Virus record (IMG/VR): IMGVR_UViG_3300042991_001091
Coordinates: 1 to 31,106 of that record
Origin: a virus
Direction: 5' to 3' (one strand)
Length of the DNA stretch: 31,106 bases
Below are positions 1 to 27,617 of this stretch, piece after piece. The position numbers and the translations under genes are program-made. The notes below the pieces were generated by a model. The model made no database searches. It was not told where the DNA came from and was given only the letters and a program-made list of their open reading frames with translations. Each line of letters begins with the position of its first letter. Within the stretch, counting starts at the first letter, position 1.

Positions 1-438
1 ATTCTTTATAACCCTTTTGCCACTGATCAGACCAAAGAAATTAAAATCAGACCAGGTGAAGACCATGCCAGCCTGCACAGTGAACGAACTAAAACATTCT
101 CAGGTTACAGTCGGGATGAAATCAGGACAATGACCAGAGAGATGAATCGTCCGCAACGCCTTTTATGGGCCATTGATGTTCTTTTTCAGAAACTGCCCAT
201 TCACGATCTGACCAAGTTTGCTCCGTCTCGTGTGGATATCATGAAAATAATCGGTCCTCCGGTATCCGGATCAGACCTGATTCATGCGGTTGAAAAATAC
301 AAATCCAACCCATCCAATATCAAGGCTTTGATCGACGAGGCTGCCATTGCTCCCCCTCCCGAGCTTGGGGATTTTTCACTGATAAAGGAACCTGAACCAG
401 ATGACCCTCTCACAACTACTGACATTAGCAGCCAATAG
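1..438 (+). CDS. 3' end of a virion-region protein of unknown function (5' truncated)
   Basis: The reading frame is open from base 1 to the stop at 436-438, giving 145 visible residues, so the true start lies upstream of the window. ATG codons at 130 and 142 are internal and not good start candidates, because the frame upstream of them is open and protein-like and has no ribosome binding site before them. The visible part is hydrophilic and probably helical, with an acidic and proline-rich end (EPEPDDPLTTTD). No domain is recognised. By position, directly before a head-tail adaptor-like gene, it is likely a virion or packaging protein, but this is inference. Its last 38 bases overlap the next gene in another frame. 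Confidence 0.7.
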   Translation: MLYNPFATDQTKEIKIRPGEDHASLHSERTKTFSGYSRDEIRTMTREMNRPQRLLWAIDVLFQKLPIHDLTKFAPSRVDIMKIIGPPVSGSDLIHAVEKYKSNPSNIKALIDEAAIAPPPELGDFSLIKEPEPDDPLTTTDISSQ

Positions 439-1069
439 GCTTGATGATACCAAGGAACCATATCTTTGGAGCGACGAAGAGCTAACCTCCTATGCCAACC
501 AGCGGATCAACAAGATCTGCGAAGAAGTTCCGGCCATTCGGGATGACTCTACTGTGGGTATCTGTACCATCCCGGTTACGGCTGGACTCAATACCTACGC
601 AACCGATCCAAGAATTATTTACATTGTCGAAGCACGGTTGAACAGTGAAGTATGGCCCCTGGGAAGAATGGGATATCAGGAATTAATTTCTTTTCAATCC
701 ACCTGGAGATCCGTCAGTAATACTCCACGTAGCTTTATTACCGACTTTGAGCTTGATCGGATCCTTCTTTATCCCAAGCCGATTGTCAACGACACACTTT
801 ATCTGAACGTCATCCGGTACCCACTGGAGCCGTTGGATTATCTGCGGGCCTCTACCATGATCCCGGAGATTCCGGCTCGCCTTCATGAGTTGCTCATCCC
901 TGGAATTACCGCCCAGGCTTACCGTAAGGCAGATGCGGAAACTGAAAATCTGGTACGCTCCAAGGAAGATGAAAAAGAATGGCTCGCTAATTTGGAGCAG
1001 ATCCGACAATTTTATCTCAACCTGCACTATACTCCAATGGTAGCAGTGCCACATCAGGCGTTTATGTAA
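401..1069 (+). CDS. Putative head-tail adaptor (connector) protein
   Basis: This 222-residue protein has an N-terminal helical segment (LSQLLTLAANRLDD, then LWSDEELTSYANQRINKICEE) followed by a beta-rich middle containing TDPRIIYIVEARL and a second helical part near the C-terminus (ARLHELLIPGITAQAYRKAD). This layout, helices then a strand-rich central part with a 'Y/I..I..A...G..L' pattern, is typical of phage adaptor proteins of the SU10/gp6-like type that sit beneath the portal. The assignment rests on family resemblance and on position just before a putative tail propeller protein. The ATG at 401 has AAGGA 11 bases upstream. The gene overlaps its upstream neighbour by 38 bases and shares TAATG with the next gene, which implies translational coupling. 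Confidence 0.55.
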   Translation: MTLSQLLTLAANRLDDTKEPYLWSDEELTSYANQRINKICEEVPAIRDDSTVGICTIPVTAGLNTYATDPRIIYIVEARLNSEVWPLGRMGYQELISFQSTWRSVSNTPRSFITDFELDRILLYPKPIVNDTLYLNVIRYPLEPLDYLRASTMIPEIPARLHELLIPGITAQAYRKADAETENLVRSKEDEKEWLANLEQIRQFYLNLHYTPMVAVPHQAFM

Positions 1070-2112
1070 TGGATCTTCGCGCTACTCACAAACTGGAGCG
1101 CTTCGGTGGAGTTGACAACGTCAGCGATCTTACCGACATGACTATGATCAGTAAGGAATTCGGGACATTCTATTTCTCTCCGACGGCCGACAATATAGAC
1201 ATTAATGACAATTCATTGATCACCCGCAGAGATGGTTATCGTGTCGTGTACACTGCCGGCAACGAAATCCATAGTCTCTGGTCGGATGACCTGGATTGTT
1301 TTTTTGTTTCTGGTACAACACTCTACCGTTTGAATGAAGATTATAGCAGCACGGTTCTTCATACGGGTCTCAGTGGACGTCCGGTGGTGTTCGCCTCCGC
1401 ATTCGGTGATACCTATTTCACGGACGGAGTTTATATCGGCTATATCTCCAAATTTACATCCACCGCCGTAACTATACTTCCAGCAGTGACTGACTTGTTC
1501 AAATCATCCATGCCGGCGGGGCATGCTATGACGTTCTACCGTAATGTCCTCTACGTGGCTGTCAATGATATTGTCTTCTGTTCCGATCCGCTGAAAATAC
1601 GTCAGTATGATGTGCGTTTCGGGATGATTCCACAGTTTGGCTACATTACTATGCTGCAATCTCTCGATAATGCGATATGGATCAGTGATGATAAATCAAT
1701 CTATTGCTGGTTGGGGACATCGCATTACGATTTTACCAATAGAAAAAAATCCGATTTTCCCGTGTTGATCAACAGCAGCACGGTAGCACTTTCTGAAAAC
1801 ACCATGCTGGAATCCGACGGGAAGTCCGTAATCATGGCCACTAAATATGGATTCTATGCCGGGACGAATGACGGCAGTTTAGTCGCACTGACCAAAAAAC
1901 GATACCATATCCCGAGTACGTTCAGTCCCGTTAGCATGGGAGTTCGCTGGTCCAAGGAGACACATCAGTGTTTGCTTGCTGGAAACGTTTATCCGTCCAT
2001 TGATGGAGCACACATTATGATTTCCACTCCGCCCCTGGACATACTGACACAAACATATCAACCGTGGTCGCTTCCGTCTTTGATTGTCTCGCTGACCGGA
2101 ACGACCGCCTAA
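1069..2112 (+). CDS. Putative beta-propeller tail (nozzle-like) structural protein
   Basis: The 347-residue protein shows repeated short beta-strand blocks, each with aromatic and Asp/Gly turns: SLWSDDLDCFFVSGTTLYRL, GDTYFTDGVYIGYIS, RNVLYVAVNDIVFCSDP, DNAIWISDDKSIYCWLG and DGKSVIMATKYGFYAGTNDG. Their spacing resembles the blades of a beta-propeller. The N-terminal part (DINDNSLITRRDGYRVVYTAG) resembles the opening of short-tailed phage tail proteins that introduce a propeller. It begins at the ATG of a TAATG overlap with the adaptor gene, which fits co-expression of neck and tail parts. Assignment as a nozzle or tail tube cap is inference from the fold pattern and gene order. A generic tail-fibre or host-contact protein is the alternative. 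Confidence 0.5.
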   Translation: MDLRATHKLERFGGVDNVSDLTDMTMISKEFGTFYFSPTADNIDINDNSLITRRDGYRVVYTAGNEIHSLWSDDLDCFFVSGTTLYRLNEDYSSTVLHTGLSGRPVVFASAFGDTYFTDGVYIGYISKFTSTAVTILPAVTDLFKSSMPAGHAMTFYRNVLYVAVNDIVFCSDPLKIRQYDVRFGMIPQFGYITMLQSLDNAIWISDDKSIYCWLGTSHYDFTNRKKSDFPVLINSSTVALSENTMLESDGKSVIMATKYGFYAGTNDGSLVALTKKRYHIPSTFSPVSMGVRWSKETHQCLLAGNVYPSIDGAHIMISTPPLDILTQTYQPWSLPSLIVSLTGTTA

Positions 2113-7622: not shown

Positions 7623-9632
7623 ATGGCTAACTATTGTTCAACCTCGTCCGCCTTTACCATTCCTGATCCCGTCAATAATGATTGGTCCAACTGGGCTATA
7701 GCTATTTCTGATAAATTTGGTTTAGCTCTCAGTTTGGTAAATTTACTACTCAAGGCTGGAGGACAGTTAGAGGCAGAAAAGGCCCTGTTCGGAGATATCA
7801 ATAATAAATACCGCATTGAAGATTACCGTGATGCGTCGAAGACTACTGCATTTTCCGTTATGCGTGATCCCATATGGCCGGTAGTCGATGAGGTTGACGA
7901 ACCCGTCCATCCTGGAAATTTATCGGTCACTATCGATCCGGTAGATGATCCCCCACGGCCGAATTTTATTGAATTATCAGCGATCAGTCCAGTCAATATC
8001 CCGCCATGGACCCTTCCCGACCATATTCCCTGGGATCCATCTATTGTTCCTACTCCCACGGCGGACGGATCAGTTCCAACAGACAGCACTGATCTTGCCG
8101 CTTTGGATGAGATTGAGATCCCCCCGGTCCCGGCCTGGATCACCCCGATATTGACCAGTCCGGATGATCCGGTCATTACGGATCCCATCATCCCCATCTG
8201 GGAAGGAATCGTATTTCCTCCGTACTTTGATGAGGATGAACCGGTCTATAACATCCTGGCGCCTGACATCAACATCGACAGTGGGAATATGGATTATAAT
8301 TCTCAACTAACCCAGGAGCTGGCGGACTGGTTGTACGATGGACTGATCCACGGTGGAACCGGGCTCCACCCGGATGTTGAAAACGCCATTTGGCAACGTG
8401 AATCGGAAAGAGACCTGTTGGCCCACACCGATCAGTTAACCCGGCTGGCCGCCGAATGGTCCAAGGGCGGATTCAATCTTCCTACCAGCATGCTCACCCA
8501 TATGTTTATGGAAGCCGACAATAACTATACCAACAAGCGCTTGGACACTTCACGTGACATTGCCATTAAGCAAGCCGAACTCGCCCAGGCTAACACCCAC
8601 TTCATCATCACTAATGTCCAAACCATGGAACAGCGGATGATTAATTGGTTCGGAGAAATTGCCAAGCGGGCGTATGATGTTTCTCGTTCAATTACCGAAT
8701 TCTCTCTTGAACGTTATAAAACTGATATTGCTGGGTTTAATACCCTGGTTGATCTATACAAAACCAAGGCTCTGGTTTACGAAATTGTCATTAAATCAGC
8801 CGTTGCTCGGCTTGAAGGGTATAAAGCCCAGCTTGAAGCGGCGAAGTTAACAGGAGAGCTGAATAAGGTTAACGTAGAAGTTTATAAGGCACAGCTTGAT
8901 GGACTGATGATTTACATCAACAAGTACAGATCTGAGATGGACGGGGCCAAGACACACATGGAAATTGAACAGCTCAAGATCCAAGAGTATAAGGCTCGGA
9001 TTGACGCTTACGCTGTCAAGGTCAAGGCCTCTGTTGATGGATACGGTATGTGGACCACAAAGGTTGATGCGGAAGCCAAAGAGATCCAGGCTTATTCTGC
9101 TGGTGCTGACGCCTGGAGTAAACGTGTTGGAGGCATCAAGGTGGGAGTGGATGCCGAGTCTGCTATGGTCCATGCGGAATCAGAGGTTAACAAAAGCTAT
9201 GCTGAAGTATATTCAGCGGATATCAAGGCCTTCGACTCGGAAACAAAGGCTCATATAGAAGAAGCGGTCGCCCAGACAAAAATTTATCAGGCACAGATGG
9301 AAGGATATGCGACTTCCGTAAAAGCCCTGGAAGTGGTCAAAAATGTTCAGTTACGTATTATCGATGAAAAACTGAAGGCTGCCCAGGAAGAATTCAATCA
9401 AAATATTGAACGCACCAAAATTGATTTTCAAGAAAAATTGGAAGAATGGCGGCTCCCCCCGGATACCTGGGACAGTATTACAAAAATTTGGGGACAAGTG
9501 ACTTCTGCCGCCCTGAATGCGGAATCGCTGACGACTCACCTGTCTCAGGGTATTTCATGGAGTGTTGGTGAAAGCACGTCTGAAAGTATGGCCTGCAGTG
9601 AGTCTCATACTTACGATGAAACAACAATTTAA
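7623..9632 (+). CDS. Long helical virion protein
   Basis: The 669-residue protein begins with a short helical region, then a Pro/Asp-rich segment (about 80-215) with many DDP, PIIP and PPYF patches. A conserved-looking block follows at about 225-300: LADWLYDGLIHGGTGLHPDVENAIW, then GGFNLPTSMLTHMF. Residues about 300-610 are almost entirely charged helix and contain related blocks spaced irregularly: EGYKAQLEAAK, EVYKAQLDGLM, QEYKARIDAYAVKVK and KIYQAQMEGYATSVK. This pattern predicts a long coiled coil or an extended helical bundle. I recognise the layout as one seen in other phage virion proteins, but no function is established for it to my knowledge. GAGGGAAC precedes the ATG. Candidate roles are an inner-core, tail or scaffold-like component. 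Confidence 0.6.
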   Translation: MANYCSTSSAFTIPDPVNNDWSNWAIAISDKFGLALSLVNLLLKAGGQLEAEKALFGDINNKYRIEDYRDASKTTAFSVMRDPIWPVVDEVDEPVHPGNLSVTIDPVDDPPRPNFIELSAISPVNIPPWTLPDHIPWDPSIVPTPTADGSVPTDSTDLAALDEIEIPPVPAWITPILTSPDDPVITDPIIPIWEGIVFPPYFDEDEPVYNILAPDINIDSGNMDYNSQLTQELADWLYDGLIHGGTGLHPDVENAIWQRESERDLLAHTDQLTRLAAEWSKGGFNLPTSMLTHMFMEADNNYTNKRLDTSRDIAIKQAELAQANTHFIITNVQTMEQRMINWFGEIAKRAYDVSRSITEFSLERYKTDIAGFNTLVDLYKTKALVYEIVIKSAVARLEGYKAQLEAAKLTGELNKVNVEVYKAQLDGLMIYINKYRSEMDGAKTHMEIEQLKIQEYKARIDAYAVKVKASVDGYGMWTTKVDAEAKEIQAYSAGADAWSKRVGGIKVGVDAESAMVHAESEVNKSYAEVYSADIKAFDSETKAHIEEAVAQTKIYQAQMEGYATSVKALEVVKNVQLRIIDEKLKAAQEEFNQNIERTKIDFQEKLEEWRLPPDTWDSITKIWGQVTSAALNAESLTTHLSQGISWSVGESTSESMACSESHTYDETTI

Positions 9633-9650
9633 TAGAAAGGAGAAATGACC

Positions 9651-10205
9651 ATGTCAGAAGATGGCGGCGATGGCGGTGATGGTGGTGATGTAGGTAGTGA
9701 TGTTGGTGGTGATGTTGGTGGTGATGTTGGTGAAGGAATAGAAGCTTATTCAGAAACCGGCCCTGAAAGTGGAGGAGAAATTGGCGCAAGCTCCGGCAAC
9801 TATGGAGCTATTAATTCTCCTTCATCCAGGGGATCTTCATACCAAGATTTTCATAATTGGGCTCCCGGATATCTTGCCCGTCAGACTGCGGTAAGTAGTC
9901 GTAATCCTTATACTCCATCCATTAGTCCTGGTCAGCAACAAAATACTGCTGATCTTCAGAAATTATTGGAGGCAGAAAAGAAGCCTGAGGAGCAAAAAAA
10001 ACCGGAGGAGCCTAAGACATCCACTCCTCCACCAAGAACTTACGGTGGGCCTTCCCAGACTGCTCCTCCGAGCAATATGATCCCACGGCCAATGCCAAAC
10101 ATTACAATGCCCACCGTTGGGGCTGGTCCTCAAAAGCTTGCCTTCTTTAAAGCGCAGGCTGACACCTTACAAGCCATGCTTCCTTATTGGAAAGCAACCG
10201 GGTAG
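9651..10205 (+). CDS. Low-complexity Gly/Asp- then Pro/Lys-rich virion-region protein
   Basis: An ATG at 9645 is also in frame, but AAAGGAG at 9636-9642 lies 8 bases before the ATG at 9651 and only 2 before 9645, so the later start is preferred (184 residues). The N-terminus is a run of GGDVGGDV-type repeats (about 27 residues), acidic and probably unstructured. The middle is Ser/Gly/Pro-rich. A charged helix follows (DLQKLLEAEKKPEEQKK), then a Pro-rich part, and the C-terminus (KLAFFKAQADTLQAMLPYW) looks like one amphipathic helix. There are no catalytic motifs. Its place between the coiled-coil protein and two proteins upstream of and including the giant suggests an internal virion or assembly role. 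The function is not recognised. Confidence 0.5.
   Translation: MSEDGGDGGDGGDVGSDVGGDVGGDVGEGIEAYSETGPESGGEIGASSGNYGAINSPSSRGSSYQDFHNWAPGYLARQTAVSSRNPYTPSISPGQQQNTADLQKLLEAEKKPEEQKKPEEPKTSTPPPRTYGGPSQTAPPSNMIPRPMPNITMPTVGAGPQKLAFFKAQADTLQAMLPYWKATG
9661..9735 (+). repeat. Short tandem repeat, 12-base unit
   Basis: The unit GATGTTGGTGGT occurs at 9699-9710 and 9711-9722, with a third partial copy at 9723-9732. They are preceded by related GGCGGTGAT/GGTGGTGAT units from 9661. The repeat encodes the GGDV repeats of the overlapping protein and stays in frame. It is a likely site of length variation. Confidence 0.75.
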
Positions 10206-10214
10206 GAGATTCGT

Positions 10215-11441
10215 ATGGCCAATCTAACAAAAGATGAAGAACAGACCATCCAGCCCCAAACACCAAACTTTACTGATAGAATCAGGGCCGGGCTTGAGCA
10301 AGACAAGTCTCTCTATCAGAATATTGGACAGGTGCTGCAAGCCCCCAAGAATGTGGGGGCCAAGATAGGAGAAGCGCTGGTCTCCGGAGCCAAGAGTGTT
10401 CAGTTTCCACAATTCTCTGCAGCAGATGTTCAGAATATTGCCAATCGGGGAACAGGTTTCCCGCGTTACCCAGACAGTAGTTCGGAGAACATCGGTCCAC
10501 TGGCCGGCCAACGCACACTTGAAAATCCAACTAACACTCCCGGTCGGACCATCCCCGAAACGGTCAGTATGCTGCCAAAGGATTCTGCCGTTAAATCCCC
10601 CTGGGCTCAGAAGTTCATGCAGGATGCAGACGCTCTTAAGCAACGCATTGGCTCTCCTGCGGCGTCGTACCAGTTTGAACCTCCTGCAGGGCAACAGATT
10701 CAGCAACCACCCCGTCCGGGCGCATCAGGCTTCAAACATAATGAAAATAACATTTACACCAACGTTCCTACTGGACGCCCCAACGAGGTGCGTTTTTCTG
10801 AAGATACCGGGATGAGGACGCCGGGAGAAAAACTGGAGGAACGTATTCGTGGTATGCTTCCTGGAGCAAACAATGACCAGGTAAAAAATATCATGTTCAA
10901 GGTGGCTCAACAACGCTTGCTGTCTGAAGCGTCACGTAAAACAACTCCGGAGAAACCAACATATCAAACGGTTAATCCCGGACAGACTCTGCTACAGATG
11001 ACTCCCGGAGGCCAGGCTAAAGAAGTTTACCGTTCTCCGAGTGCACAGGGAGAGACCAAGGCTTGGGATAAAAATGTTGACCAAGCGCAACAGGCCCATA
11101 AAACCAGCCGTGATGCGTACAATAAGGGTTGGGACGCCATCTCCGAGAACGTTCCCAATGAACCAAACCAAGACCAGTCGTTACATTATATTACCCAACG
11201 AGAAAAGGCCCACCATGATTACAACACCCAGTATTTCACTTCTCTGGGTGTAGAGCCGGGTTTGGCCGCTGTGCATGAATCACGCGAATTATTTCTCAGG
11301 CAAATGTTGAAACCAGGAGAAAGAATGTCCAGTGAACAGAAGCAAGAGCTGTTAAAAGACCATAAATTGCTGATGAAAGAACGCCATCGTCAGATGAGCA
11401 AGAAATACAATAACACTCTCAGGTTCGATTCTGGAAATTAA
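10215..11441 (+). CDS. Hydrophilic internal virion or assembly protein, unknown family
   Basis: The 408-residue protein starts at an ATG preceded by TAGGAG and follows the previous stop by 9 bases. It is Gln/Pro/Asn-rich, with a central disordered-looking segment (about 70-200) and a charged helical C-terminal half. That half includes a KLEERIRGMLPGANNDQVKNI block (about 206-226) and a terminal KKYNNTLRFDSGN. It has no cysteine-rich or catalytic signature. The N-terminal helix with AKIGEALVSGAKS resembles the amphipathic segments found in proteins that accompany ejected internal virion proteins. It lies directly before the giant gene (3-base gap), so a role in packaging or ejection of the giant is plausible, but this is contextual inference. 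Confidence 0.5.
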   Translation: MANLTKDEEQTIQPQTPNFTDRIRAGLEQDKSLYQNIGQVLQAPKNVGAKIGEALVSGAKSVQFPQFSAADVQNIANRGTGFPRYPDSSSENIGPLAGQRTLENPTNTPGRTIPETVSMLPKDSAVKSPWAQKFMQDADALKQRIGSPAASYQFEPPAGQQIQQPPRPGASGFKHNENNIYTNVPTGRPNEVRFSEDTGMRTPGEKLEERIRGMLPGANNDQVKNIMFKVAQQRLLSEASRKTTPEKPTYQTVNPGQTLLQMTPGGQAKEVYRSPSAQGETKAWDKNVDQAQQAHKTSRDAYNKGWDAISENVPNEPNQDQSLHYITQREKAHHDYNTQYFTSLGVEPGLAAVHESRELFLRQMLKPGERMSSEQKQELLKDHKLLMKERHRQMSKKYNNTLRFDSGN

Positions 11442-11444
11442 AAC

Positions 11445-14400
11445 ATGGCTGAACGAGATGTTAGTCAAATTTTGGAAGATCTAAAAAAAACCAGCTCCGG
11501 AACGAGTACTCCGACAACTCAGGACGAGTGGATCGCGAAGCTACGTGCCGATGCCGGCCCAAGTGAATCTTACGCCCCCCCGGTCTCTCCCGATTTGTGG
11601 AAACCAGAGGATTTACAGAGAATGCTTCCTGAAGCAGAGTATCCCGTTCCAGCCGACTGGAAGCCTCCGGCCTACCAATACACTCCTTCCAAGGGATCCG
11701 TAATGGATGAATTCGCTCGTGGGATGGAATCCGGACTGCGTGGTATTGCCAGTGCTCCAAATGCCGCCATTGCTATGGCTGGAAATTTGGTCAAACAGGT
11801 AGGGGCTACCAACGTCGGACAGGCGGTAGAAGATTTCGGTCGGACCGGAATGGATTACTGGAAGCCTGATCCACGATTCAACAACGCACCTCGTGTTACC
11901 AAGATTGAAGACGTTCAGGGTACTAAAGATTTGGTGGATTATCTCGCCGGAGCAGCCGGACAATTTGCCCCGCAGGTGGGATTATCCGTAATGGGTGGTG
12001 GACTGGGTGCTTTCGGCGGTAAAGCTCTGGCTCAACGGATGCTCCCTAACGCCTTCAGTCAATTCCCGACTGCTGCATCAACCGCTGCCGCCGGTAAGAT
12101 GATCAACCGTGGCATTATGGCCGGTGTCGGGGCCACAGGTATGGCCCAGGAAAATGAACAAATTGCGTCCATGCAGTTGGAAAAGAATCAAAAACTGGAT
12201 GCTTTCCGTGCAATACCTTTTGCCGCCCTTGCCGGGGCCACTGAAATTGTCCCTGTGGTATCACTGCTCAAGCGTACCGGTATGGGTAATCAGATTTTGA
12301 AGCGTCTGGGGGTTAACACTCTGGAAGATGCGGTTATGCGTGGTCCAGGGATTGTTCCACTTGTAAAGTCAATCGTTGCCGGCGGGATGAAAATGGCCGG
12401 CATTGAAGCTGGTCAAGAAGGAATCCAGACTGAATTGGAGCGAGCCGGTGTCGAGGGTATGTCTCTGACAGACGCTGAAGCTCGTTCTGATGTTCTTAAC
12501 TCCATGATCCAGGGTGGATTTCTCGGCCTGGTTACTGGTGGGGCCGGTGGATCAGTCGTTCCTGTCAGGCCGAACATGCAACGATCGGGCCAACGGTTAT
12601 CCGATATTTTTCAAACCGGCGGAGAACTGGTTGATCAGCAGCCGTTATCAGCCGCTGGACAGCCACTGAACCCTTCCGGCCAGGCGAATGATCTTCCGGT
12701 CGGAACAGATCTGGCTAATCTACCCGATGCAGACCTGACCTACCTGGGAAGACGAGAACACCCTCCGGTATCCCCTCTCGGACTTCCAGAACCTTCTAAC
12801 ATGCTTCCTGAGCCGGTTGATTCTCTGGGGAATAAGATCCCCTATTCCGGATCCGTCCCCCCGGCCCCGGAGCTCGGCCCCACCCAACGCACCTGGTTCC
12901 CTTATGGCAGCGAGGGTGACGAAACAGCCTATCCAACATCATCCGCAGCTCGACAGGTTGATCTTACTCAATCACCAGCTCGGCCGCCGGCAACAGGAAC
13001 AACCACGCCTTCCGCTCCGGTCGATTTGACGTCTCCTCAACCGCAAACCATGGTTACTCCGGCTATTGCTAAGACTATCGACGAAACAAGCCGTATTTCC
13101 AGCATGTTGGACGAGACAACTATCCTTGATACCCAGGTTCACCCAACAACCGGGGATTTGGTTGTTCTGGATCCAGACCAATCCCTGGCCGGAATTATGC
13201 AGAACCGGGGCGCCCTATTCAATGAAGCCTACCGCTCCTGGGTAGTCCCCCGGAGTAAAATAAATGATCTCATCCCGGAACTGCAAGCCACCGCCCCTGC
13301 GCCTACCCCTCACCCGTCAAGTCAATCTCTGGCGCAAACAGCCAGTAATGCTATAAATCAACAAGTTCAATTCGGTGATCAGGTCGAACGGTCCGAAAAG
13401 AAACGTACCCCTCCGAAAACCTTCTCTGAACTCGGTCCGCTGGAAATGGCTATTAACGCTGCTGCAGCGGCTCAACCAGAAGAATCACTGTCCCAGCCCG
13501 GTACACTGGACATTCCGGAAAAAACTGCTCTTCAGAGGGACAACCAAGATCGTATGAACGCTATGCTTGAGGCTGCCGGCTTGGGAGCTGGTCGATTAGC
13601 CGCCAAGGGGCAAGAAGCGGTCCAGCCTGAAGCGATCGCCGAACCTCGTACCGGTATCACCATGCCGGACAAACTTCCCGCTACCCTGGAGACTACCGGT
13701 CAAGACGAGGGACGGCTTGCCGCTCGTAATAAAACTGGTCCACCCGAGGGTCTGGTCAACACCGGCATCGAACCTCCAACCGCCATTCACCGCAGTTTTT
13801 TTAATAAACTACGACGCCTGATGGCCCCTGGACAACGTGATGCAGGTGGAAAAATTATTGCCCCGAATCCGGAATCACGTACAGACATCGGTGCTCGGAT
13901 GAACAGCGGTTTTGGTATGCCTACGGCAGTCAAGGGATTTTCCGCATCCGAGGTTGAGAAACTTTCGACCTATACGCCGGAACTGCGAGGTGTTGTTGAG
14001 CCTGAAGAAATCATTATGTCCAATGGCGAAGCCTTTCGTCATTCCGGCCGAACCGCTTATCGTTATAATATTCCCAACCACTATAATGCTGATCTCGATC
14101 CACTGGGCCTCTGGAAACAGACCGCTATGATCCATGCGGCAAATTCCCATGCTCATCCCGGTGTTATCTTCTCCAATTTGGTAAAAAAACATGGCTACTC
14201 CGGTTATGTATTTAATTTTGATAAGGAAGGCAAGGAGCGCTGGGTGGCTACCTTTACTCCGGTCAAGATTCAAGAAAATCTCGGTAAAATGTCTGTGAAG
14301 GAGCAAAGTGCTGAACCAGCTCCAGATGGTGTACGCTTTGACGGTGAAATGATGGGCTACCGTCAGTTTACCGATACACAGTCCGGGCGTACTTTACTCA

Positions 14401-17400
14401 AAGATCCCGGCGAAACCATGGATCAGTTCATGGAACGGCTTCGTCCTGCCGGTAAACTCATGACTGCCGAGGGTCAACCCGAAACCGTAGAGGAATCAGC
14501 CGGCGAACAGCAACGAGTTAAACACAGTGCCGTTAAATCATTTGTACGGAAGCTGAATAAATCCCTGCCTCCTGGTCTGCGTGTTGTAGCCATTCAATCG
14601 ACTGCCGAGCTTCCTGATGCTATCCAATCGACACTCTTACGTCTTGATCCAGACTCCAAGGTTTTTGGCTATATGGATCCAGACGGTACGTGCTATCTCG
14701 TAACGTCATCGTTCGAAACCATTGAGCATATTTATGAAACGCTGGCCCATGAACTCATCGGTCATTACGGTCTTGAACAAATGATGGGCGAAGCCGCATT
14801 CAACAAGATGATGCTGTCCGCCTATGACAGTATGATGTCGCATTCCGATACTAAGGCTGAGATGACTGCGATATGGAAGTTGTACAACACTGTCGGCCAG
14901 AAGCCCAATTTTGATTTACATACCCAAGAGGGTAAGATTCGTTTAATGGGTGAGATGGTAGCGCATATTTCAGAAACATCGCAGAACCCTACCTGGTTTG
15001 AAAATATTATTTCATCCGTGCGTGCGTTTCTCCGTCAACTTGGTTTCACGGTCGAATGGACCAATCAAGACATTCGTGCCATGCTGCAGCAGTCGTCTGA
15101 TTACATTTTCAGTAATCCTGTGAAGTCCGACGCAACAACCGGCGGGCTGCAAATTAAAGTTTTCCACGGTACCGGACAACGGTTTCGTAAATTCGACTTT
15201 AATAAAATCGGCTCGGAATCAGGCCAAATGGCCTATGGTTGGGGCGCCTACGTCTCCGATATTAAAGGCGTCGGAATGTACTATGCTGAAAAGGCCGGGA
15301 AGACATCCCCCAGCGGAAAAGGCTGGACGGGAACATTTATCATTCATAAGGGTAAAGACCAGAAAGATTATCAGTTCCTTGATTGGAATACACCGGTTGA
15401 TCCTCAGTTGCTTCAGACCATTCATGACGACCTAACCCCTGAACAGCAGGTTCGCTTCGACGACACCATGAACGAATATGCCAAAGAAGCAAACGGCAAC
15501 CGTGGTGCTGTAGTTTATCAGGCTGTACGGGATGCGCTTTATGGACAAAGCAAAGAAGAAGCAATATCGGCCGGCAATTACTATCCAGCAAAAGTTGAGT
15601 CGGCCCGGCAAGCTTCATTGTTTTTTGTCGCCCATGGAATTTCCGGGATGCGTTATCCGGCCGGAAAAAAACTTGGAGATATCCATTACGGAACAACTGC
15701 CGGTCATGATTATGTCATTTATGACGAATCCGCCATGGACGTTGAAAAATTCCAACGCACTTATCAGCGTAAGCAGGGTCAATTCCTTGTTCGTCAAAAC
15801 GACCAGCTTGGTGTTGGATCGGTCATGGTTCAGATGGATACCGGTAAGCTTGCTGCTGCCGTTCCTCCGTCCAGTGTTAATTATTTAGCCAATGGAAAGG
15901 CCCTGCCATTATTAAAAGATTTGCCGGATAATCCCGATGTTCACAAGCTCTGGACGGCTGTATCATCCGTCATGCGATCATTGATCAACCCCCAGCATCC
16001 ATATCTCAGCCTGAACCGCTCTATGGTAGAAGACATCTTGGGACAGCAACCGGCCCTTAATGGTCCTGCCAAGGCGGCCTGGACCGATTTGCAGAACTTC
16101 TACGCTTCGGTCCTTGGCACCTTAGCCGAACCAAAGCGCATCAAGATTACAACAGAAATTACCGACATGCCGGAACGGATGGCCAGATTTGCGGTCAAAA
16201 AAGGTGGTATTCTGCAGGATGATGAATTCTACAAGCGGTACCTCCGTCCCTACATGAATCAGGCTAAGCGTGAAATTGACATGGCCGGCGAGGTTGGGAT
16301 CCAGGAGTTTATCCGCAAGAACCGCCCGACGGTCAACAGCGATTCCAAGCGCGCCATTCAGGGTATCGCAGACTTGCTGGATGAATATGCAAAATCCAGG
16401 CCACAGGAAACTGGTGACAACCAGAAAATAGTCGCCCCGGAAAAGGTTGCAAACTGGAAGCAGGAGGTAGAAAAAACAAGGGAATTCGTCAAACGGTTCA
16501 AAGATGCGGTGGATATCTACCGCAACGTTTGGATACAGGCCCTCGACCAACAGGCAGGGAAAACAGAATCCAAGCCCGCCGGCCGGCAGGAATATCTGGT
16601 CAATGGGAAACCAATGCCGGATTTCAGCCAGTCAAATTCACAGGCTGTTCAAGTAACCATGGAGAAGATTCACATTCTTCTCAAAATCCTCTCCGGGCAA
16701 TCTACCGGCAAGCGTCTCTATGCTCAACTATCCGTGCAGAAAGTCCTCAAAAATGTCGGCAAGGGAGAATTGGGATCCTGGCGCCCGGGGCTTTCCAATA
16801 AAACATTCGGAGATCTGATCGAACTCAGCAAGTGGTATTACGATACTTTCGGCCAGATCGACTGGAGAAACCCTCCGGATAAATTCAAACCAGTTGATGT
16901 TAAAATGACGACCCCTGGGGCCACGTCCACCATGCGAGATCAGGGAGGGAGTTTCTTGATTCGCCAGGGTAAACCTCCGTCCGGTCCAGTGGCCACTGAA
17001 TATAAACTTCTCCGCACACTCAAGACCCGCCCAGGGGAGGTCTTCTCTCTCTTCATCGGGAATAAAGAATCAATCCCCGTAGGCGAATGGCTGACTGCTG
17101 AACCTCTGCCTACCGCCGGGTTTGCTGACCGGCCTGGATGGCATACCAGCAAGACACCATCCACAAAACATCTCAGCGAGGCTAACCGTGTTTGGGCCGA
17201 GGTAGAAGTTCCGGCCACCACTGAAGACCGTGTTGCTGGGAAACCACCAAGCCCTAACGGTCAATACAAATTTCCCCGCCCGGCAGCACAGGGTGGAGAA
17301 TGGACCATCAGTGGATCCATAAAAGTGGTTAAAATACTCACCCCGGAGGAAGTAGAAAAGACTCGCTCTGGGAAACTTTCCGTCCGTCTTGCTATCGATA

Positions 17401-20390
17401 ACACCAAAAGACACACCGTTGTTCGTGTATCAGACAGCAAGGTGGTCGCATCATTTTCAGATCAAAAACAGGCCTGGGATTTTATTGCTGCCATGCCTAA
17501 AGAGGATCGCGGAAAACATTATTACGAAAGGCGACCAACTCCGGCTGCGGTAGAAGCCAATCGACGCATGAAAGAGGGTAGTCTGGCCGTCCGCAATGAC
17601 GTTAACGGTCAATTCATCCAGCCCAACGACCGCTGGTACGCCCAACCCATGGCCTTCACCGACCGTCTCAAGGAAGTTATGAGCACTGTCAAGGACTGGT
17701 GGCATGAGCGTGTTACTCCTCAGCTACAACATTTCAAGGATTTAAACTACAAAGACCCCTCTCAATTGCCAGTAGTGGAGCATCTCCGCCAGGCGGAAGA
17801 AATACCCAGGTATGCTCGGGAACTGGTCGGAAGATTCAATCAACGACTGCTGGTCATTTTGAAAAATGATCAAGATCGAGACACCTATGAGCACCTCGCA
17901 GTCCTTCGGGACATGTTCCGTGAAGCCACCATCGGTGTTGTTTCTCAGAAGGGTCCACAACAGATCAATGATTTTCTCGAAGCCCAGGGTTATGCTGATT
18001 TGGGCCAACTGCAAAGCCATATCGCTCATTTTGAATCACTCCGCAATGCTGCGGTGAATGAGGCCCTTAATCTCCGCAAATCATTCTGGGATAGATGGCG
18101 CCGGAAAGCCGTCGCTGCGGACATCCTTCCGGACAGTATTCTTGAAAATGAAGACTACTTTCACCATCAAGTCAAGCAATGGCAGGAACTCAACGAGAAG
18201 TTTTCCGGGACAGCCCCGGGGATGCACAAGACCAAAAAATCGTTTCAAAAGGGACGAACAGGTTTCGCCGGAGAATATAATCTGGACTATTTTGCCAGCG
18301 AAACCGGCGTACTTGTTGATCTAATCACCCAAGTTCAAACCGCCAAATCGTTGCAAGATATCCGCAACAATGATAAATTAAACGTTCTACCGCGCCTGGT
18401 AGCCGAGGCCGATCGGCTGAATGCCGCTGCGGCTCCGGGAACCACCAAGGAAACGTGGAAAACAGTCCTGAAGAGCGGTTTGGTCCTGGATGCTTTTGGC
18501 AACCCGATCACCGAACAGACCCACGAATTTTACAAACCTGTCCGGGGTAACTTCTTCCATAAAGTTCTAACCCTGACCGAGCGGTCCATCAGAAACATCA
18601 TGGAAGAATTGCAAAATGTCGTTGGTCCCGATCCTACCCTGGACGAACTGATGGACATTGCCAGACTACACGCCGGAACTGCCATAGCCACCGGATTACG
18701 ACAACCACTTCTTGATAATTACATGGTGTTGAACCGTCAGATCATCAGTGCCATGGAACACTTCCAGGAACAAACCGATCCTACCTTCCTTGGCCGCATG
18801 ACATCATATCTCCAAACCCAATGGAAGCGCTGGATTCTGTTCAACCCCTTCCGAGTTACCCGTTACCTGCTCAACAACACTACCGGTGACGCCGACATTT
18901 CTTTTGCCTATCGTCCTGGTATTTTCAAGCATGTAGGACAAGCATATAAAGAACTCTACGCTTGGGCCTACAAGAATTCAGCCGGTTTAACTAACGCTCA
19001 GCGTAATAAACTTGAAACCTTAAACCGTAAGGGCCTTCTCGGTTCCGGTATTACAGTGCATGAAATTCCTGAATTGTCCGATGACACGTTGACCAAGTTG
19101 ATTAATAATCCGAAACCTCAACTGATCAAGCGCTGGTTCAAGGGTGTTCATAAATTCAACAATTTCCGTGAAAACATTATGAGACTGGCCGCCTGGGAAT
19201 ACATGAATGCTGAAAATGCTGCCGGTCGGTTTGCCGATCTTCATTATGCGGCCAGCAATAAGGCCGAAGTGAACGCCATTGATTCCATGGACGACAAGCT
19301 CATCAAGATGTCAAGGGAATTGATCGGAGATTACGGGAACTTATCCTATGTTGGTCAAAAACTCCGCAAATATGTCATTCCATTCTGGTCCTGGGCTGAA
19401 ATCAATGCCCCCCGATACTTCAGAATGATGAACAATGAAATCCGAGCCGGAAATACCAGGGGAGGGCTTAGGGTTGCCGGCGTTCTCGGGGCAAAGGCCG
19501 CTGTGCGTGCTGGTGCATTTGCCGCCCTGGTCATGGCCTGGAACTTCGCCTTTTTCCGAGACGAAGAAGAAGAGATGCGCCGTCTCGGACGTGATCAACT
19601 CCATCTGATTCTCGGCCGTCATTCTGATGGTTCAGTCATTTCCTTACGTGTCCAGGGATCTTTTTCCGATACCCTCGGATGGCTCGGTGCGGAAAACCTT
19701 CTTGAGGAACTCCGCTCACTGAAGAAAGGACGGGTAACCCTCGCCGAGGAAGCCAAGTCGATAGCCATGGCCCCGGTGAAACGTCTCATTGGCGGTATCA
19801 CTCCACTTTATAAAACCGCTGCTGAAGCCGCTACGGGAAAGTCCATGTTTCCTGAGCCGTTCAACCCTCGCCCCATTCGTGACAAGTTTCAACATATTAT
19901 GAAGGGTGCAGGCCTTGATTGGATTACAGACCGCTATATCTCTGGAAAGCCGGCGCCTCCGCTGTTCAGTATGAAGTCCATCGCCCAGCCGTTTCTCTAC
20001 ATCACTGATACCCATGAAGCTGCCTACTTCCATTCCATCAAGTTGGCGAATGATTGGCTAAAAGACCAGGGAATGCCTCGGACATCGTCCGACCCGACTC
20101 CACGGTCCAATGCACTGTATTACTGGCGTCAGGCGACCAAGCTTAAAGATAAAGAGGCTGAAGCCTATTACAAGGCCCTCTACCTTAAACTTGGCGGCAA
20201 GGCAACAGGTATGAAGCAATCCATCAAGCACACCGATCCATTGGTCGTCATTCCTCTTAAATTCCGGGCTAAATTTCTCTCCTCCATGGGAGAGGATAAT
20301 AAAAAGACCTGGCGCATGGGTGTCCGCTGGTGGCAAGAAACCTTCAAGGGATATCAGCACGCTCCGGGGAACACGTCCGACGGAGATTAG
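11445..20390 (+). CDS. Giant multidomain (polyvalent) phage protein with metallopeptidase-like and ADP-ribosyltransferase-like domains
   Basis: The 2981-residue protein shows in order: a hydrophobic Gly/Ala-rich region (about 85-370) like those of ejected internal virion proteins; Pro-rich linkers containing a GALFNEAYRSWVVP motif (about 585-600); a module ending in WVATFTPVKI (about 785-940); a metallopeptidase-like domain with HELIGH at 1102-1107 and GEMVAH at 1169-1174; and an ADP-ribosyltransferase-like domain with FHGTG (H1241), AYGWGAYVSD (1263-1272) and YVIYDE (1423-1428). After these come an RPGWH module (1840-1970), a small module (1980-2045), and a helical C-terminal half with ILFNPFRVTRYLLNNTTGD (about 2463-2481), LIGDYGNLSYVG and IPFWSW blocks and a hydrophobic stretch near 2680-2703. 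The domain mix matches the published class of phage polyvalent proteins, thought to enter the cell with the DNA. Domain names are by recognition, and activity is untested. Confidence 0.8.
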   Translation: MAERDVSQILEDLKKTSSGTSTPTTQDEWIAKLRADAGPSESYAPPVSPDLWKPEDLQRMLPEAEYPVPADWKPPAYQYTPSKGSVMDEFARGMESGLRGIASAPNAAIAMAGNLVKQVGATNVGQAVEDFGRTGMDYWKPDPRFNNAPRVTKIEDVQGTKDLVDYLAGAAGQFAPQVGLSVMGGGLGAFGGKALAQRMLPNAFSQFPTAASTAAAGKMINRGIMAGVGATGMAQENEQIASMQLEKNQKLDAFRAIPFAALAGATEIVPVVSLLKRTGMGNQILKRLGVNTLEDAVMRGPGIVPLVKSIVAGGMKMAGIEAGQEGIQTELERAGVEGMSLTDAEARSDVLNSMIQGGFLGLVTGGAGGSVVPVRPNMQRSGQRLSDIFQTGGELVDQQPLSAAGQPLNPSGQANDLPVGTDLANLPDADLTYLGRREHPPVSPLGLPEPSNMLPEPVDSLGNKIPYSGSVPPAPELGPTQRTWFPYGSEGDETAYPTSSAARQVDLTQSPARPPATGTTTPSAPVDLTSPQPQTMVTPAIAKTIDETSRISSMLDETTILDTQVHPTTGDLVVLDPDQSLAGIMQNRGALFNEAYRSWVVPRSKINDLIPELQATAPAPTPHPSSQSLAQTASNAINQQVQFGDQVERSEKKRTPPKTFSELGPLEMAINAAAAAQPEESLSQPGTLDIPEKTALQRDNQDRMNAMLEAAGLGAGRLAAKGQEAVQPEAIAEPRTGITMPDKLPATLETTGQDEGRLAARNKTGPPEGLVNTGIEPPTAIHRSFFNKLRRLMAPGQRDAGGKIIAPNPESRTDIGARMNSGFGMPTAVKGFSASEVEKLSTYTPELRGVVEPEEIIMSNGEAFRHSGRTAYRYNIPNHYNADLDPLGLWKQTAMIHAANSHAHPGVIFSNLVKKHGYSGYVFNFDKEGKERWVATFTPVKIQENLGKMSVKEQSAEPAPDGVRFDGEMMGYRQFTDTQSGRTLLKDPGETMDQFMERLRPAGKLMTAEGQPETVEESAGEQQRVKHSAVKSFVRKLNKSLPPGLRVVAIQSTAELPDAIQSTLLRLDPDSKVFGYMDPDGTCYLVTSSFETIEHIYETLAHELIGHYGLEQMMGEAAFNKMMLSAYDSMMSHSDTKAEMTAIWKLYNTVGQKPNFDLHTQEGKIRLMGEMVAHISETSQNPTWFENIISSVRAFLRQLGFTVEWTNQDIRAMLQQSSDYIFSNPVKSDATTGGLQIKVFHGTGQRFRKFDFNKIGSESGQMAYGWGAYVSDIKGVGMYYAEKAGKTSPSGKGWTGTFIIHKGKDQKDYQFLDWNTPVDPQLLQTIHDDLTPEQQVRFDDTMNEYAKEANGNRGAVVYQAVRDALYGQSKEEAISAGNYYPAKVESARQASLFFVAHGISGMRYPAGKKLGDIHYGTTAGHDYVIYDESAMDVEKFQRTYQRKQGQFLVRQNDQLGVGSVMVQMDTGKLAAAVPPSSVNYLANGKALPLLKDLPDNPDVHKLWTAVSSVMRSLINPQHPYLSLNRSMVEDILGQQPALNGPAKAAWTDLQNFYASVLGTLAEPKRIKITTEITDMPERMARFAVKKGGILQDDEFYKRYLRPYMNQAKREIDMAGEVGIQEFIRKNRPTVNSDSKRAIQGIADLLDEYAKSRPQETGDNQKIVAPEKVANWKQEVEKTREFVKRFKDAVDIYRNVWIQALDQQAGKTESKPAGRQEYLVNGKPMPDFSQSNSQAVQVTMEKIHILLKILSGQSTGKRLYAQLSVQKVLKNVGKGELGSWRPGLSNKTFGDLIELSKWYYDTFGQIDWRNPPDKFKPVDVKMTTPGATSTMRDQGGSFLIRQGKPPSGPVATEYKLLRTLKTRPGEVFSLFIGNKESIPVGEWLTAEPLPTAGFADRPGWHTSKTPSTKHLSEANRVWAEVEVPATTEDRVAGKPPSPNGQYKFPRPAAQGGEWTISGSIKVVKILTPEEVEKTRSGKLSVRLAIDNTKRHTVVRVSDSKVVASFSDQKQAWDFIAAMPKEDRGKHYYERRPTPAAVEANRRMKEGSLAVRNDVNGQFIQPNDRWYAQPMAFTDRLKEVMSTVKDWWHERVTPQLQHFKDLNYKDPSQLPVVEHLRQAEEIPRYARELVGRFNQRLLVILKNDQDRDTYEHLAVLRDMFREATIGVVSQKGPQQINDFLEAQGYADLGQLQSHIAHFESLRNAAVNEALNLRKSFWDRWRRKAVAADILPDSILENEDYFHHQVKQWQELNEKFSGTAPGMHKTKKSFQKGRTGFAGEYNLDYFASETGVLVDLITQVQTAKSLQDIRNNDKLNVLPRLVAEADRLNAAAAPGTTKETWKTVLKSGLVLDAFGNPITEQTHEFYKPVRGNFFHKVLTLTERSIRNIMEELQNVVGPDPTLDELMDIARLHAGTAIATGLRQPLLDNYMVLNRQIISAMEHFQEQTDPTFLGRMTSYLQTQWKRWILFNPFRVTRYLLNNTTGDADISFAYRPGIFKHVGQAYKELYAWAYKNSAGLTNAQRNKLETLNRKGLLGSGITVHEIPELSDDTLTKLINNPKPQLIKRWFKGVHKFNNFRENIMRLAAWEYMNAENAAGRFADLHYAASNKAEVNAIDSMDDKLIKMSRELIGDYGNLSYVGQKLRKYVIPFWSWAEINAPRYFRMMNNEIRAGNTRGGLRVAGVLGAKAAVRAGAFAALVMAWNFAFFRDEEEEMRRLGRDQLHLILGRHSDGSVISLRVQGSFSDTLGWLGAENLLEELRSLKKGRVTLAEEAKSIAMAPVKRLIGGITPLYKTAAEAATGKSMFPEPFNPRPIRDKFQHIMKGAGLDWITDRYISGKPAPPLFSMKSIAQPFLYITDTHEAAYFHSIKLANDWLKDQGMPRTSSDPTPRSNALYYWRQATKLKDKEAEAYYKALYLKLGGKATGMKQSIKHTDPLVVIPLKFRAKFLSSMGEDNKKTWRMGVRWWQETFKGYQHAPGNTSDGD

Positions 20391-21246
20391 TCGCTGCTTT
20401 ACTCGGGAGGCTCTTATCGGCATGACGATCGAGGGCCTCCTTTTTTGCGCCCAATTCAATATGAGCGTATCTGGCCGTTTGAGCCAAGTCGGAATGCCCG
20501 AGAATCGACTGAAGCAATTTCAAGTTCCCGACTTCCCGGAGGAACGATGTCGCAAAGGTATGCCGTAGGATATGCCATCCGGAATAGGGCAGCTTAGCCC
20601 ACTGGAAAGCCCGATTGATCCCGGCGTCGGTTCCCGCTACTCTGGGCTGATAATGATTCCTCGGCGAAGGGAAGACCCAGGGGGTATCACCCCAGCTTTT
20701 CTTTCCCAGGTACCGCTTGTGCTTTTCCAGGATCTCCATCATCTGCGGTGATAAAGGGATTGTCAGTGTCTTTCCGCGCTTAACCTTGACCGTCAGAATT
20801 CCGTTGATAATTTGGTCCCAACGCAGCTTGAAAATGTTTTCCCGCCTCAGTCCGGTGGTCAGCGCCAGGGATACCATAATCTTCAGAGGATTTCTACAAT
20901 AAAACAATAATTTTTGGGCCTCATCATCAGTCATAAACTGTTCGTTCATCTTGGGAACCAGGCAGTGCATCACCGGAAGTTTCTCCACAGCATCATATTC
21001 CTGCCCCATTCTGAGGATTCCCAGAAGAGTCTGGAGCATCAGATTAACAGACGCAGCCGCCAGCTCCTTGCTGTCCACCTTGAGTTGATCTACCTCTTTC
21101 TGGCCGATCGTACCTATCTTTTGATTCAAAAAATAGGCGTTAAGATGTTTAATTGCCCATTCATAGGCCCTGAGAGTATTGATCGGCACTCTCATGGCCT
21201 GTTTCCGTTCTAAAAACATTTCTGAATAATCGGTAAACTTTTCCAT
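20344..21246 (-). CDS. int: Tyrosine recombinase (phage integrase)
   Basis: The 300-residue protein has an N-terminal SAM-like DNA-binding domain (about 1-95) and a catalytic domain. It carries the tyrosine recombinase residues: Arg134 (in TTGLRRENIFKLRW), Lys159 (VKRGKT), His225 and Arg228 (HILRHTFATSF), His251 (LGHSDL) and Tyr260 (ARYAHI). All catalytic positions are present, so it is predicted active in site-specific integration or excision. The ATG has GAGGAG shortly upstream on the minus strand and a TTGACA promoter. Its last 47 bases overlap the end of the giant gene in convergent orientation, and the 3' end carries the virion-operon terminator. The C-terminal 40 residues after Tyr260 are longer than needed for catalysis and follow the overlap. 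An attachment site is not identifiable by eye. Confidence 0.93.
   Translation of the reverse strand: MEKFTDYSEMFLERKQAMRVPINTLRAYEWAIKHLNAYFLNQKIGTIGQKEVDQLKVDSKELAAASVNLMLQTLLGILRMGQEYDAVEKLPVMHCLVPKMNEQFMTDDEAQKLLFYCRNPLKIMVSLALTTGLRRENIFKLRWDQIINGILTVKVKRGKTLTIPLSPQMMEILEKHKRYLGKKSWGDTPWVFPSPRNHYQPRVAGTDAGINRAFQWAKLPYSGWHILRHTFATSFLREVGNLKLLQSILGHSDLAQTARYAHIELGAKKEALDRHADKSLPSKAATNLRRTCSPERADIP
20407..20446 (+). terminator. Rho-independent terminator of the virion operon
   Basis: GGAGGCTCT (20407-20415) pairs with AGGGCCTCC (20432-20440) through nine positions including one G-U pair. Inside it ATCG and CGAT can add an inner stem. Six T residues follow at 20441-20446. It lies 17 bases after the giant gene's stop and inside the 3' coding part of the opposing integrase gene. 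There is no T run on the other strand, so it acts on rightward transcription. Confidence 0.85.
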
Positions 21247-22162: not shown

Positions 22163-22400
22163 TGTTTACCTGGCGGCTTTTATGGCCAGTCACAGTTTTC
22201 CACTGGATCTTGAAATTGTGACTCCGACAAAAATTGCTTTTGTATTTACCGGTACGCAAGAACAAATTGACCAAGCCCGGAATTCTTATTTTCATGATAG
22301 CGAACTTCAAGCCTTTATAGGACAAATTAGACAAATGAAGATTGCTCTACATGATTGTCTTCGCCGGAATAATGATGATATCTATAGGAATGATATATGA
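22134..22400 (+). CDS. DUF5659-like small early protein
   Basis: The frame is open from 22086, but that start lies deep in the DUF3310 gene with no binding site. ATG at 22134 has AAGGA upstream at about 11 bases and gives 88 residues. The pattern VYDVYLAAFMASHSFPL.LEIV, then KIAFVFTGTQEQIDQARNSYF and FIGQIRQMKIALHD, matches the DUF5659 type as I know it (DLYLAAFL..kG, r..FVF.d, .y....v....f...ik.LK). That family has no assigned function. It overlaps the DUF3310 gene by 29 bases and ends in an ATGA overlap with the nuclease gene. The family assignment is moderate. Confidence 0.55.
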   Translation: MEKVQYRVYDVYLAAFMASHSFPLDLEIVTPTKIAFVFTGTQEQIDQARNSYFHDSELQAFIGQIRQMKIALHDCLRRNNDDIYRNDI

Positions 22401-27323: not shown

Positions 27324-27572
27324 TGTCCAGCAAAAACCCCGTTTTTTAATGTTTTGTCCGCGGCTGTCCGCTGGACAAGGGCAGACAAGCACGTGTAAGT
27401 TATTGATTGCAGGTAGCGTGTCCGCCCCTGTCCGATGGACAACCGTGGACAAAGGCCCTAAAAACGGGCTTTTTTTCGGACAAGTGAGGACAGATCCAGG
27501 TAGATAATATTTTATTAACACGTGACCTCTTATATACGCACGCACGCGCGGTTGAAATTCTGTCCGAGGACA
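27324..27572. repeat. TGTCC/GGACA site cluster
   Basis: TGTCC occurs at 27324-27328, 27355-27359, 27365-27369, 27419-27423, 27429-27433 and 27561-27565. GGACA occurs at 27373-27377, 27437-27441, 27447-27451, 27478-27482, 27488-27492 and 27568-27572. Three pairs form palindromes: TGTCCGCTGGACA (27365-27377), TGTCCGATGGACA (27429-27441) and TGTCCGAGGACA (27561-27572). Many copies extend to TTGTCCG or CGGACAA. The density far exceeds chance for a five-base word. Confidence 0.85.
27451..27476 (+). terminator. Rho-independent terminator within the TGTCC/GGACA cluster
   Basis: AAAGGCCC (27451-27458) pairs with GGGCTTTT (27466-27473) with one G-U pair around a 7-base loop, and the T run reaches 27476 (seven T). 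It lies 170 bases after the RHH-like gene and would separate transcription of that gene from the helicase. Confidence 0.7.
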
Positions 27573-27617
27573 TTTTTGCATAGTATGTTTATTATAGAGA
27601 GGAGAAGGGGGAATAAT

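What the first reader, a model, noticed from the sequence alone, without database searches (positions are those of the whole stretch)
11445..20390. A 2981-residue giant polyvalent protein at the end of a phage virion operon
One gene takes nearly a third of the window. Domains seen in order are a Gly/Ala-rich hydrophobic region, a WVATFTPV module, a HELIGH peptidase-like domain, an ADP-ribosyltransferase-like domain, an RPGWH module, a small beta/alpha module and a long helical C-terminal region with a membrane-like stretch. Published work on phage polyvalent proteins proposes that such proteins are delivered with the DNA and act on host defence or signalling early in infection. The exact module combination here, with peptidase and ART in tandem, is a good candidate for an uncharacterised ejected effector system.
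Basis: partly seen in the sequence, partly recalled or inferred. Interest (0 to 1): 0.85.

Follow-up and report, generated by a model that had tools for sequence, protein, structure and literature searches.

The report
Giant injected multitool protein of podovirus
This short-tailed phage ends its particle-building operon with a 2,981-residue multi-domain protein of a known kind, probably packed into the virion and shot into the host with the DNA, and one of its modules is also used on its own by T7-like phages as one of their very first anti-host genes.

Summary
In detail: one uninterrupted ORF (11445-20390, 2981 aa) closes a colinear podovirus virion operon. Relatives (Hollowayvirus F116/D14S, Shewanella Y11, uncultured ctwe8250, many IMG/VR contigs) carry a giant in the same slot. 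It is a phage "polyvalent protein" (Iyer 2017 class): a zincin-like peptidase (HELIGH is the HEXXXH variant, 1025-1220) followed by an ART of the H-Y-D type (H1241/Y1269/D1427). The peptidase-ART tandem is not new: an archaeal virus (MetMV) and Shewanella Y11 have the same order, and published work already describes such fusions, with the peptidase as a probable self-processing enzyme. Pfam LPD38 is absent; N- and C-terminal regions only hint at the N4 virion-RNA-polymerase chassis. The surprise is the RPGWH module (1836-1972): absent from Pfam, 74 distinct copies found, 25 inside large (mostly giant) ORFs of mostly SU10-adaptor podoviruses and 47 as a stand-alone ~105-aa protein, in four T7-like phages next to the 0.7 kinase and, in three of them, directly behind antirestriction gene 0.3. 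One effector domain therefore seems deployed by two routes: injected or expressed first. Its function is unknown; virion presence is untested.

The parts
11445..20390 (+). giant polyvalent protein gene, 2981 aa
11682..12734 (+). aa 80-430, Gly/Ala-rich hydrophobic N-terminal region (possible membrane-inserting head; TM-like aa 254-277)
   Evidence: weak match to the N-terminal domain shared by Hollowayvirus-type giants and N4 vRNAP (E 0.007; 0 of 1000 local shuffles; not significant against real unrelated ORFs)
12735..13811 (+). aa 431-789, Pro/Thr/Ala-rich linker
   Evidence: composition
13812..14474 (+). aa 790-1010, WVATFTPV module, orphan
   Evidence: no match in phages at E<=1 or in fetched loci
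14517..15104 (+). aa 1025-1220, zincin-like metallopeptidase of polyvalent proteins; HEXXXH at aa 1102-1107; candidate third Zn ligand E1170
   Evidence: AF2 model of this half well ordered
15129..15845 (+). aa 1229-1467, ADP-ribosyltransferase of ART-PolyVal / Tox-ART-HYD2 type; H1241, Y1269, D1427
   Evidence: AF2 model of this part is low confidence
16950..17360 (+). aa 1836-1972, RPGWH domain (phrog_12224; no Pfam family)
17367..17579 (+). aa 1975-2045, small beta/alpha module, orphan
17577..20387 (+). aa 2045-2981, C-terminal region (helical as read by eye) with hydrophobic segment aa 2677-2704 (window 19473-19556) about 290 residues before the C-terminus, the same place as in most giants and in N4 vRNAP
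   Evidence: weak profile match aa 2501-2665 to the C-terminus of ctwe8250/L018/L032/L053 giants (not significant); Pfam LPD38 not found
10215..11441 (+). 408-aa gene directly upstream; positional counterpart of the gene that precedes the giant in relatives, possible second ejection protein
   Evidence: position only
9645..10205 (+). 186-aa low-complexity protein; positional counterpart of the small third ejection protein (N4 gp52), speculative
   Evidence: position only
7623..9632 (+). 669-aa virion-operon protein conserved across the lineage (phrog_10969), anchor for colinearity
401..1069 (+). SU10-type adaptor (short-tailed phage connector)
   Evidence: PF24175 E 1.7e-15
1069..2112 (+). head-closure Hc3-like protein
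   Evidence: phrog_8040 E 8e-22

Best explanation
The gene encodes a phage-type polyvalent protein: a late protein packed into the head of a short-tailed (probably temperate) phage and ejected into the cell with or ahead of the DNA. The hydrophobic N-terminal region and the C-terminal region are the carrier part. The central HEXXXH zincin probably cuts the giant, in the head or after entry, so that its cargo works separately. The cargo is an NAD+-using ART that modifies a host protein (Alt-like logic) and the RPGWH domain, which acts on an early host target, the same kind of job it does as an early gene in T7-like phages. Shown by sequence: the ORF, its slot, the peptidase homology, the ART residues, and the dual occurrence of RPGWH. 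Inferred: packaging, ejection, self-cleavage, both cargo activities and their targets.
For: Colinear virion operons with a giant in the same slot in ctwe8250, D14S/F116, Y11 and many IMG/VR contigs. Peptidase homologous to that of giants carrying LPD38/LPD5/LPD1/LPD3/InPase. HEXXXH is a described polyvalent subtype, with processing proposed as its role (PMC5512222). ART-PolyVal match with H-Y-D. ART directly behind the peptidase also in MetMV, L106 and Y11. RPGWH in 25 large (mostly giant) ORFs; 11 of 15 records with such giants also encode an SU10 adaptor. Stand-alone RPGWH beside the 0.7 kinase in four T7-like phages, directly behind 0.3 in three. N4 vRNAP, a proven ejected giant, is a last-in-operon gene with hydrophobic NTD, HExxH domain and helical C2 (PMC12633501). 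The N4 NTD matches the Hollowayvirus giant NTD profile at 16.1 bits against 8.6 for the best clearly unrelated ORF.
Against: No proteomics of this or a close virion. LPD38 not found. The window's own N- and C-terminal similarity to other giants is not significant against real unrelated ORFs. The ART match is partial and below Pfam's cut-off, and its fold was not confirmed. RPGWH has no significant fold match in the PDB. The related phage AP1 seems to lack a giant, so it is not essential in all relatives.
Confidence: 0.72

Rival explanations
1. A purely structural ejection protein (T7 gp16 / N4 vRNAP scaffold role): it forms the inner-membrane end of the DNA channel, and the ART, peptidase and RPGWH are inactive relics or structural spacers.
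For: Slot, size, hydrophobic ends and the hydrophobic C-terminal segment at the same distance from the end as in N4 vRNAP. In N4 the HExxH domain is part of a giant whose known enzyme activity is a polymerase.
Against: ART triad H1241/Y1269/D1427 and the HEXXXH plus a conserved Glu are intact. Cargo modules swap between relatives while the slot stays. RPGWH exists as a free early gene, which a spacer would not need.
Confidence: 0.15
2. Prophage-encoded toxin or fitness factor acting from the lysogen or against rivals, not carried in the virion.
For: The phage encodes an integrase; ART and peptidase domains are common in toxins.
Against: No secretion signal or immunity gene was noticed nearby (not searched with a dedicated tool); the gene starts 3 bases behind the virion operon and the slot is kept among phages of this lineage.
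Confidence: 0.05
3. RPGWH is a divergent ART-fold (NAD-handling) domain, so the giant would carry two NAD-dependent effectors. (This refines the best explanation rather than excluding it.)
For: ART-superfamily structures (Arr 2hw2, Arr-2 9iba, Xre-RES 9r35, cholix 2q5t, tankyrase 4tjw) appear in the top 50 of the Foldseek search, Arr first.
Against: No match is significant (best E 0.39, TM 0.28); the H-Y-D pattern is absent from the invariant residues K21 G31 L36 R63 W66 H67 W84. Viral-library matches point instead to DUF7666 and rIIB-type proteins.
Confidence: 0.2

Closest known systems
Phage-type polyvalent proteins (Iyer et al. 2017, PMC5512222)
   Same: Multi-domain giant with unrelated activities, MPTase plus ART, encoded beside virion genes in phages
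   Different: No LPD38 or other Pfam LPD found; carries RPGWH, which has no Pfam model
MetMV AZF89913 (3002 aa, Methanosarcina virus)
   Same: MPTase directly followed by ART, 22% identity over 1025-1404; similar size
   Different: LPD38 at the C-terminus; HEXXH rather than HEXXXH; no RPGWH found
Hollowayvirus giants (F116 gp59+gp60, D14S DBA08961) and ctwe8250 UOF79314
   Same: Same slot in a colinear operon; MPTase present
   Different: Cargo differs (methyltransferase, LPD23, LPD3 in D14S)
N4 virion RNA polymerase gp50 (PMC12633501)
   Same: Last gene of the virion operon after two smaller ejection proteins; hydrophobic NTD, HExxH domain, large C2, hydrophobic segment about 280 residues from the C-terminus
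   Different: RNA polymerase replaced by ART/RPGWH cargo; direct sequence homology of the window's ends to N4 not established
phrog_12224 / stand-alone RPGWH proteins (IMM-002, Pisces, vB_EclP_26, CR3, phiTE)
   Same: Same ~105-aa domain, 35-38% identity
   Different: Stand-alone gene, beside the 0.7 kinase in the T7-like phages, not part of a giant

Membership tests
Phage-type polyvalent protein | at least two domains with unrelated activities in one polypeptide | tested here: met
   MPTase, ART and RPGWH
Phage-type polyvalent protein | encoded next to virion genes of a phage | tested here: met
Phage-type polyvalent protein | MPTase of the HEXXH/HEXXXH polyvalent type | tested here: met
   profile match 173 bits, a profile that includes the window itself; independent BLAST matches E 3e-13 and 1e-8; HEXXXH
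Phage-type polyvalent protein | packaged and injected | not testable with these tools
   needs virion proteomics
ART-PolyVal (PF18760) | score over the curated cut-off | tested here: not met
   23.7 bits against 31.2, positions 4-52 of 140
ART-PolyVal / Tox-ART-HYD2 | H-Y-D active-site residues | tested here: met
   H1241, Y1269, D1427 by motif
LPD38 giants (PF18857) | LPD38 domain near the C-terminus | tested here: not met
   no match at E<=1; own profile no better than shuffles
N4 vRNAP-like ejected giant | N4-type RNA polymerase domain | tested here: not met
   no Pfam or NCBIfam polymerase match
N4 vRNAP-like ejected giant | shared N-terminal domain | tested here: inconclusive
   window E 0.007 and 0 of 1000 shuffles, but 19 ORFs under 1100 aa score as high or higher, most of them unrelated
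Hollowayvirus-type podovirus | colinear SU10 adaptor, Hc3 and phrog_10969 operon | tested here: met
   20-30% identity only, so a distant relative, not a member of the genus

The most novel reading that the evidence does not exclude
RPGWH is an undescribed early host-takeover or counter-defence effector domain that phages deploy by two routes: pre-made and injected inside giant polyvalent proteins of SU10-type podoviruses, and as a first-expressed small gene in T7-like phages (and as a small gene in large myophages).
Probability: 0.45. Interest if true: 0.72.

Novelty: new member of a known kind. Interest (0 to 1): 0.52.

Why it matters
Polyvalent giants have been proposed as injected multitools since 2017, but few of their modules can be tested in isolation. 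RPGWH exists as a free ~105-aa gene in cultured E. coli T7-like phages, so the function of one module of an otherwise intractable metagenomic giant becomes directly testable by deleting one small gene in a laboratory phage. The conserved slot with swapping cargo, and N4 vRNAP sharing its N-terminal domain with Hollowayvirus giants, suggest that the N4 virion polymerase is one cargo choice on a wider ejected chassis.

Tried and rejected
Whole-protein and C-terminus pattern scans of IMG/VR found no close relative. PDB sequence searches gave nothing useful. LPD38 membership was tested by Pfam, by an iterated profile and by hhalign and was not met. N-terminal homology to other giants looked convincing against shuffles but not against real unrelated ORFs with composition correction, so it is downgraded. 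The AF2 model of peptidase+ART is good for the first half only and gave no zincin or ART match. T4 rIIB shows no sequence similarity to RPGWH, although rIIB-type and DUF7666 models resemble its predicted fold. PADLOC found nothing. Rfam and tRNA scans were empty. Helicase matches do not narrow the host. The phrog_8040 search of RPGWH records was uninformative because nothing rang even in controls; PHROGs did not name the genes just upstream of other RPGWH giants as virion genes.

Full report
Observation. The window is an IMG/VR record of 31,106 bases. The ORF 11445-20390 (+) codes for 2981 residues without a stop and starts 3 bases after the stop of the gene at 10215-11441.

Where it sits. Upstream genes are an SU10-type adaptor (PF24175, E 1.7e-15), a head-closure protein and other virion genes, and a 669-aa protein with homologues in Hollowayvirus and relatives (phrog_10969, E 4e-75). 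The uncultured podovirus ctwe8250, Pseudomonas phages D14S and F116 and Shewanella phage Y11 keep comparable operons and put a giant of 2166 to 3812 aa (split in F116) in the same slot, behind a gene of 385-725 aa. A scan with the 669-aa protein gave 55 IMG/VR loci; many of them end this operon with a giant, others do not show one within the stretch fetched. Acidovorax phage AP1 shares several operon genes but shows no giant in the stretch read.

Peptidase. Residues 1025-1220 match giants of MetMV, Achromobacter CF418P1, Dolichospermum Dfl-JY45 and an Endozoicomonas plasmid-phage. CF418P1 and Endozoicomonas carry further Pfam polyvalent domains besides LPD38 (InPase, LPD3, LPD5, LPD1), MetMV carries LPD38, and D14S and Y11 carry LPD23, LPD3, ddrB-ParB, LPD5, LPD1 and ART-PolyVal between them. 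Of 43 distinct domain copies, 26 are HEXXXH, 16 HEXXH and one has neither. PMC5512222 describes the HEXXXH set and proposes that such peptidases process the giant.

ART. The Pfam ART-PolyVal match is real but partial (E 9e-5, below cut-off). H1241, Y1269 and D1427 fit the H-Y-D pattern described for this clade. The order peptidase-ART recurs in MetMV, in L106 and in Y11, so the tandem is a recurrent pair, already described in kind. The AF2 model is well ordered for the peptidase half and poor for the ART; a PDB fold search was uninformative.

RPGWH. Residues 1836-1972 form a domain with no Pfam family, matching phrog_12224. A profile scan of IMG/VR found 148 relatives, 80 kept. Among the loci held, 74 distinct domain sequences occur: 25 in ORFs of 600 aa or more, 2 in cut ORFs of 337 and 572 aa, and 47 in ORFs under 300 aa, mostly about 105 aa. 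Seven positions are invariant in a 64-sequence alignment, among them R, W and H of RPGWH. Of 15 records with RPGWH giants, 11 also encode an SU10 adaptor at E <= 0.001 (8 over the curated cut-off), so most are short-tailed phages. Roseobacter phage CRP-212 carries the domain in a 1203-aa protein two genes after the portal. The stand-alone gene lies directly between gene 0.3 (SAM hydrolase or gp0.3, antirestriction) and the 0.7 kinase in Escherichia phages IMM-002 and Pisces and in Enterobacter phage vB_EclP_26, and just before the kinase in Enterobacter phage NJ2, where nothing is annotated in the 0.3 place. In T7-like phages (own knowledge) this is the region that enters and is expressed first. 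The predicted structure is confident (pLDDT 86, pTM 0.82). It has no significant PDB match; the first hit is Arr, an ADP-ribosyltransferase, at E 0.39, with four more ART-fold entries in the top 50. In the viral library it finds its own family and, more weakly, DUF7666 and rIIB-type proteins. T4 rIIB shows no sequence similarity. These fold hints are leads only.

Ends of the protein and the N4 analogy. [quoted passage not shown] The N-terminal profile of Hollowayvirus-type giants, built without N4, finds N4 at 16.1 bits against 8.6 for the best clearly unrelated ORF; I take this as homology. For the window the same region reaches E 0.007 and beats 1000 shuffles but not real unrelated ORFs once composition is corrected; it stays suggestive. 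The C-terminal region resembles those of ctwe8250, L018, L032 and L053 weakly. Of 23 giants with a clear C-terminal hydrophobic peak (mean hydropathy 1.4 or more), 17 have it 256-315 residues from the end, the window at 293 and N4 at 280 (my count from the list; several of the 23 are close relatives). LPD38 is not detected in the window.

Mechanism. Shown: the slot, the peptidase homology, the ART residues, and the two forms of RPGWH. Inferred: packaging, passage through the tail ahead of DNA, membrane association through the ends, self-cleavage by the zincin, ADP-ribosylation of a host protein, and an early host target for RPGWH.

Verdict. The giant is a new member of a known kind. The peptidase-ART combination is ordinary within that kind. 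The dual deployment of RPGWH is the part worth a specialist's time, because it can be tested in a laboratory coliphage.

Noticed in passing
20344-21246 (-): Tyrosine recombinase/integrase gene convergent with the giant; its ORF overlaps the last 47 bases of the giant. Suggests a temperate phage.
   Followed up: partly
22397-24300: Exonuclease-like gene followed by a Sak4-like annealing protein; a recombination module.
   Followed up: no
27522-29327: DNA helicase (phrog_2488, E 1e-95) with wide but distant relatives (best Bacillus phage G, 31%).
   Followed up: partly
3427-5856: 809-aa virion-operon protein with a concanavalin A-like (Laminin_G_3) domain, probably receptor or sugar binding.
   Followed up: no
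L009 (Acidovorax phage AP1) 33916-38414: Operon relative that has small genes where the others have the giant; the giant may be dispensable in this lineage.
   Followed up: partly
L153 13914-15089 and L129 13922-14443: The giant's N-terminal domain is split over several short ORFs in these relatives; broken gene or sequencing error.
   Followed up: no
L132 and L078 giants: Two MPTase domains in one giant (L132 1857-2041 and 2082-2264).
   Followed up: no
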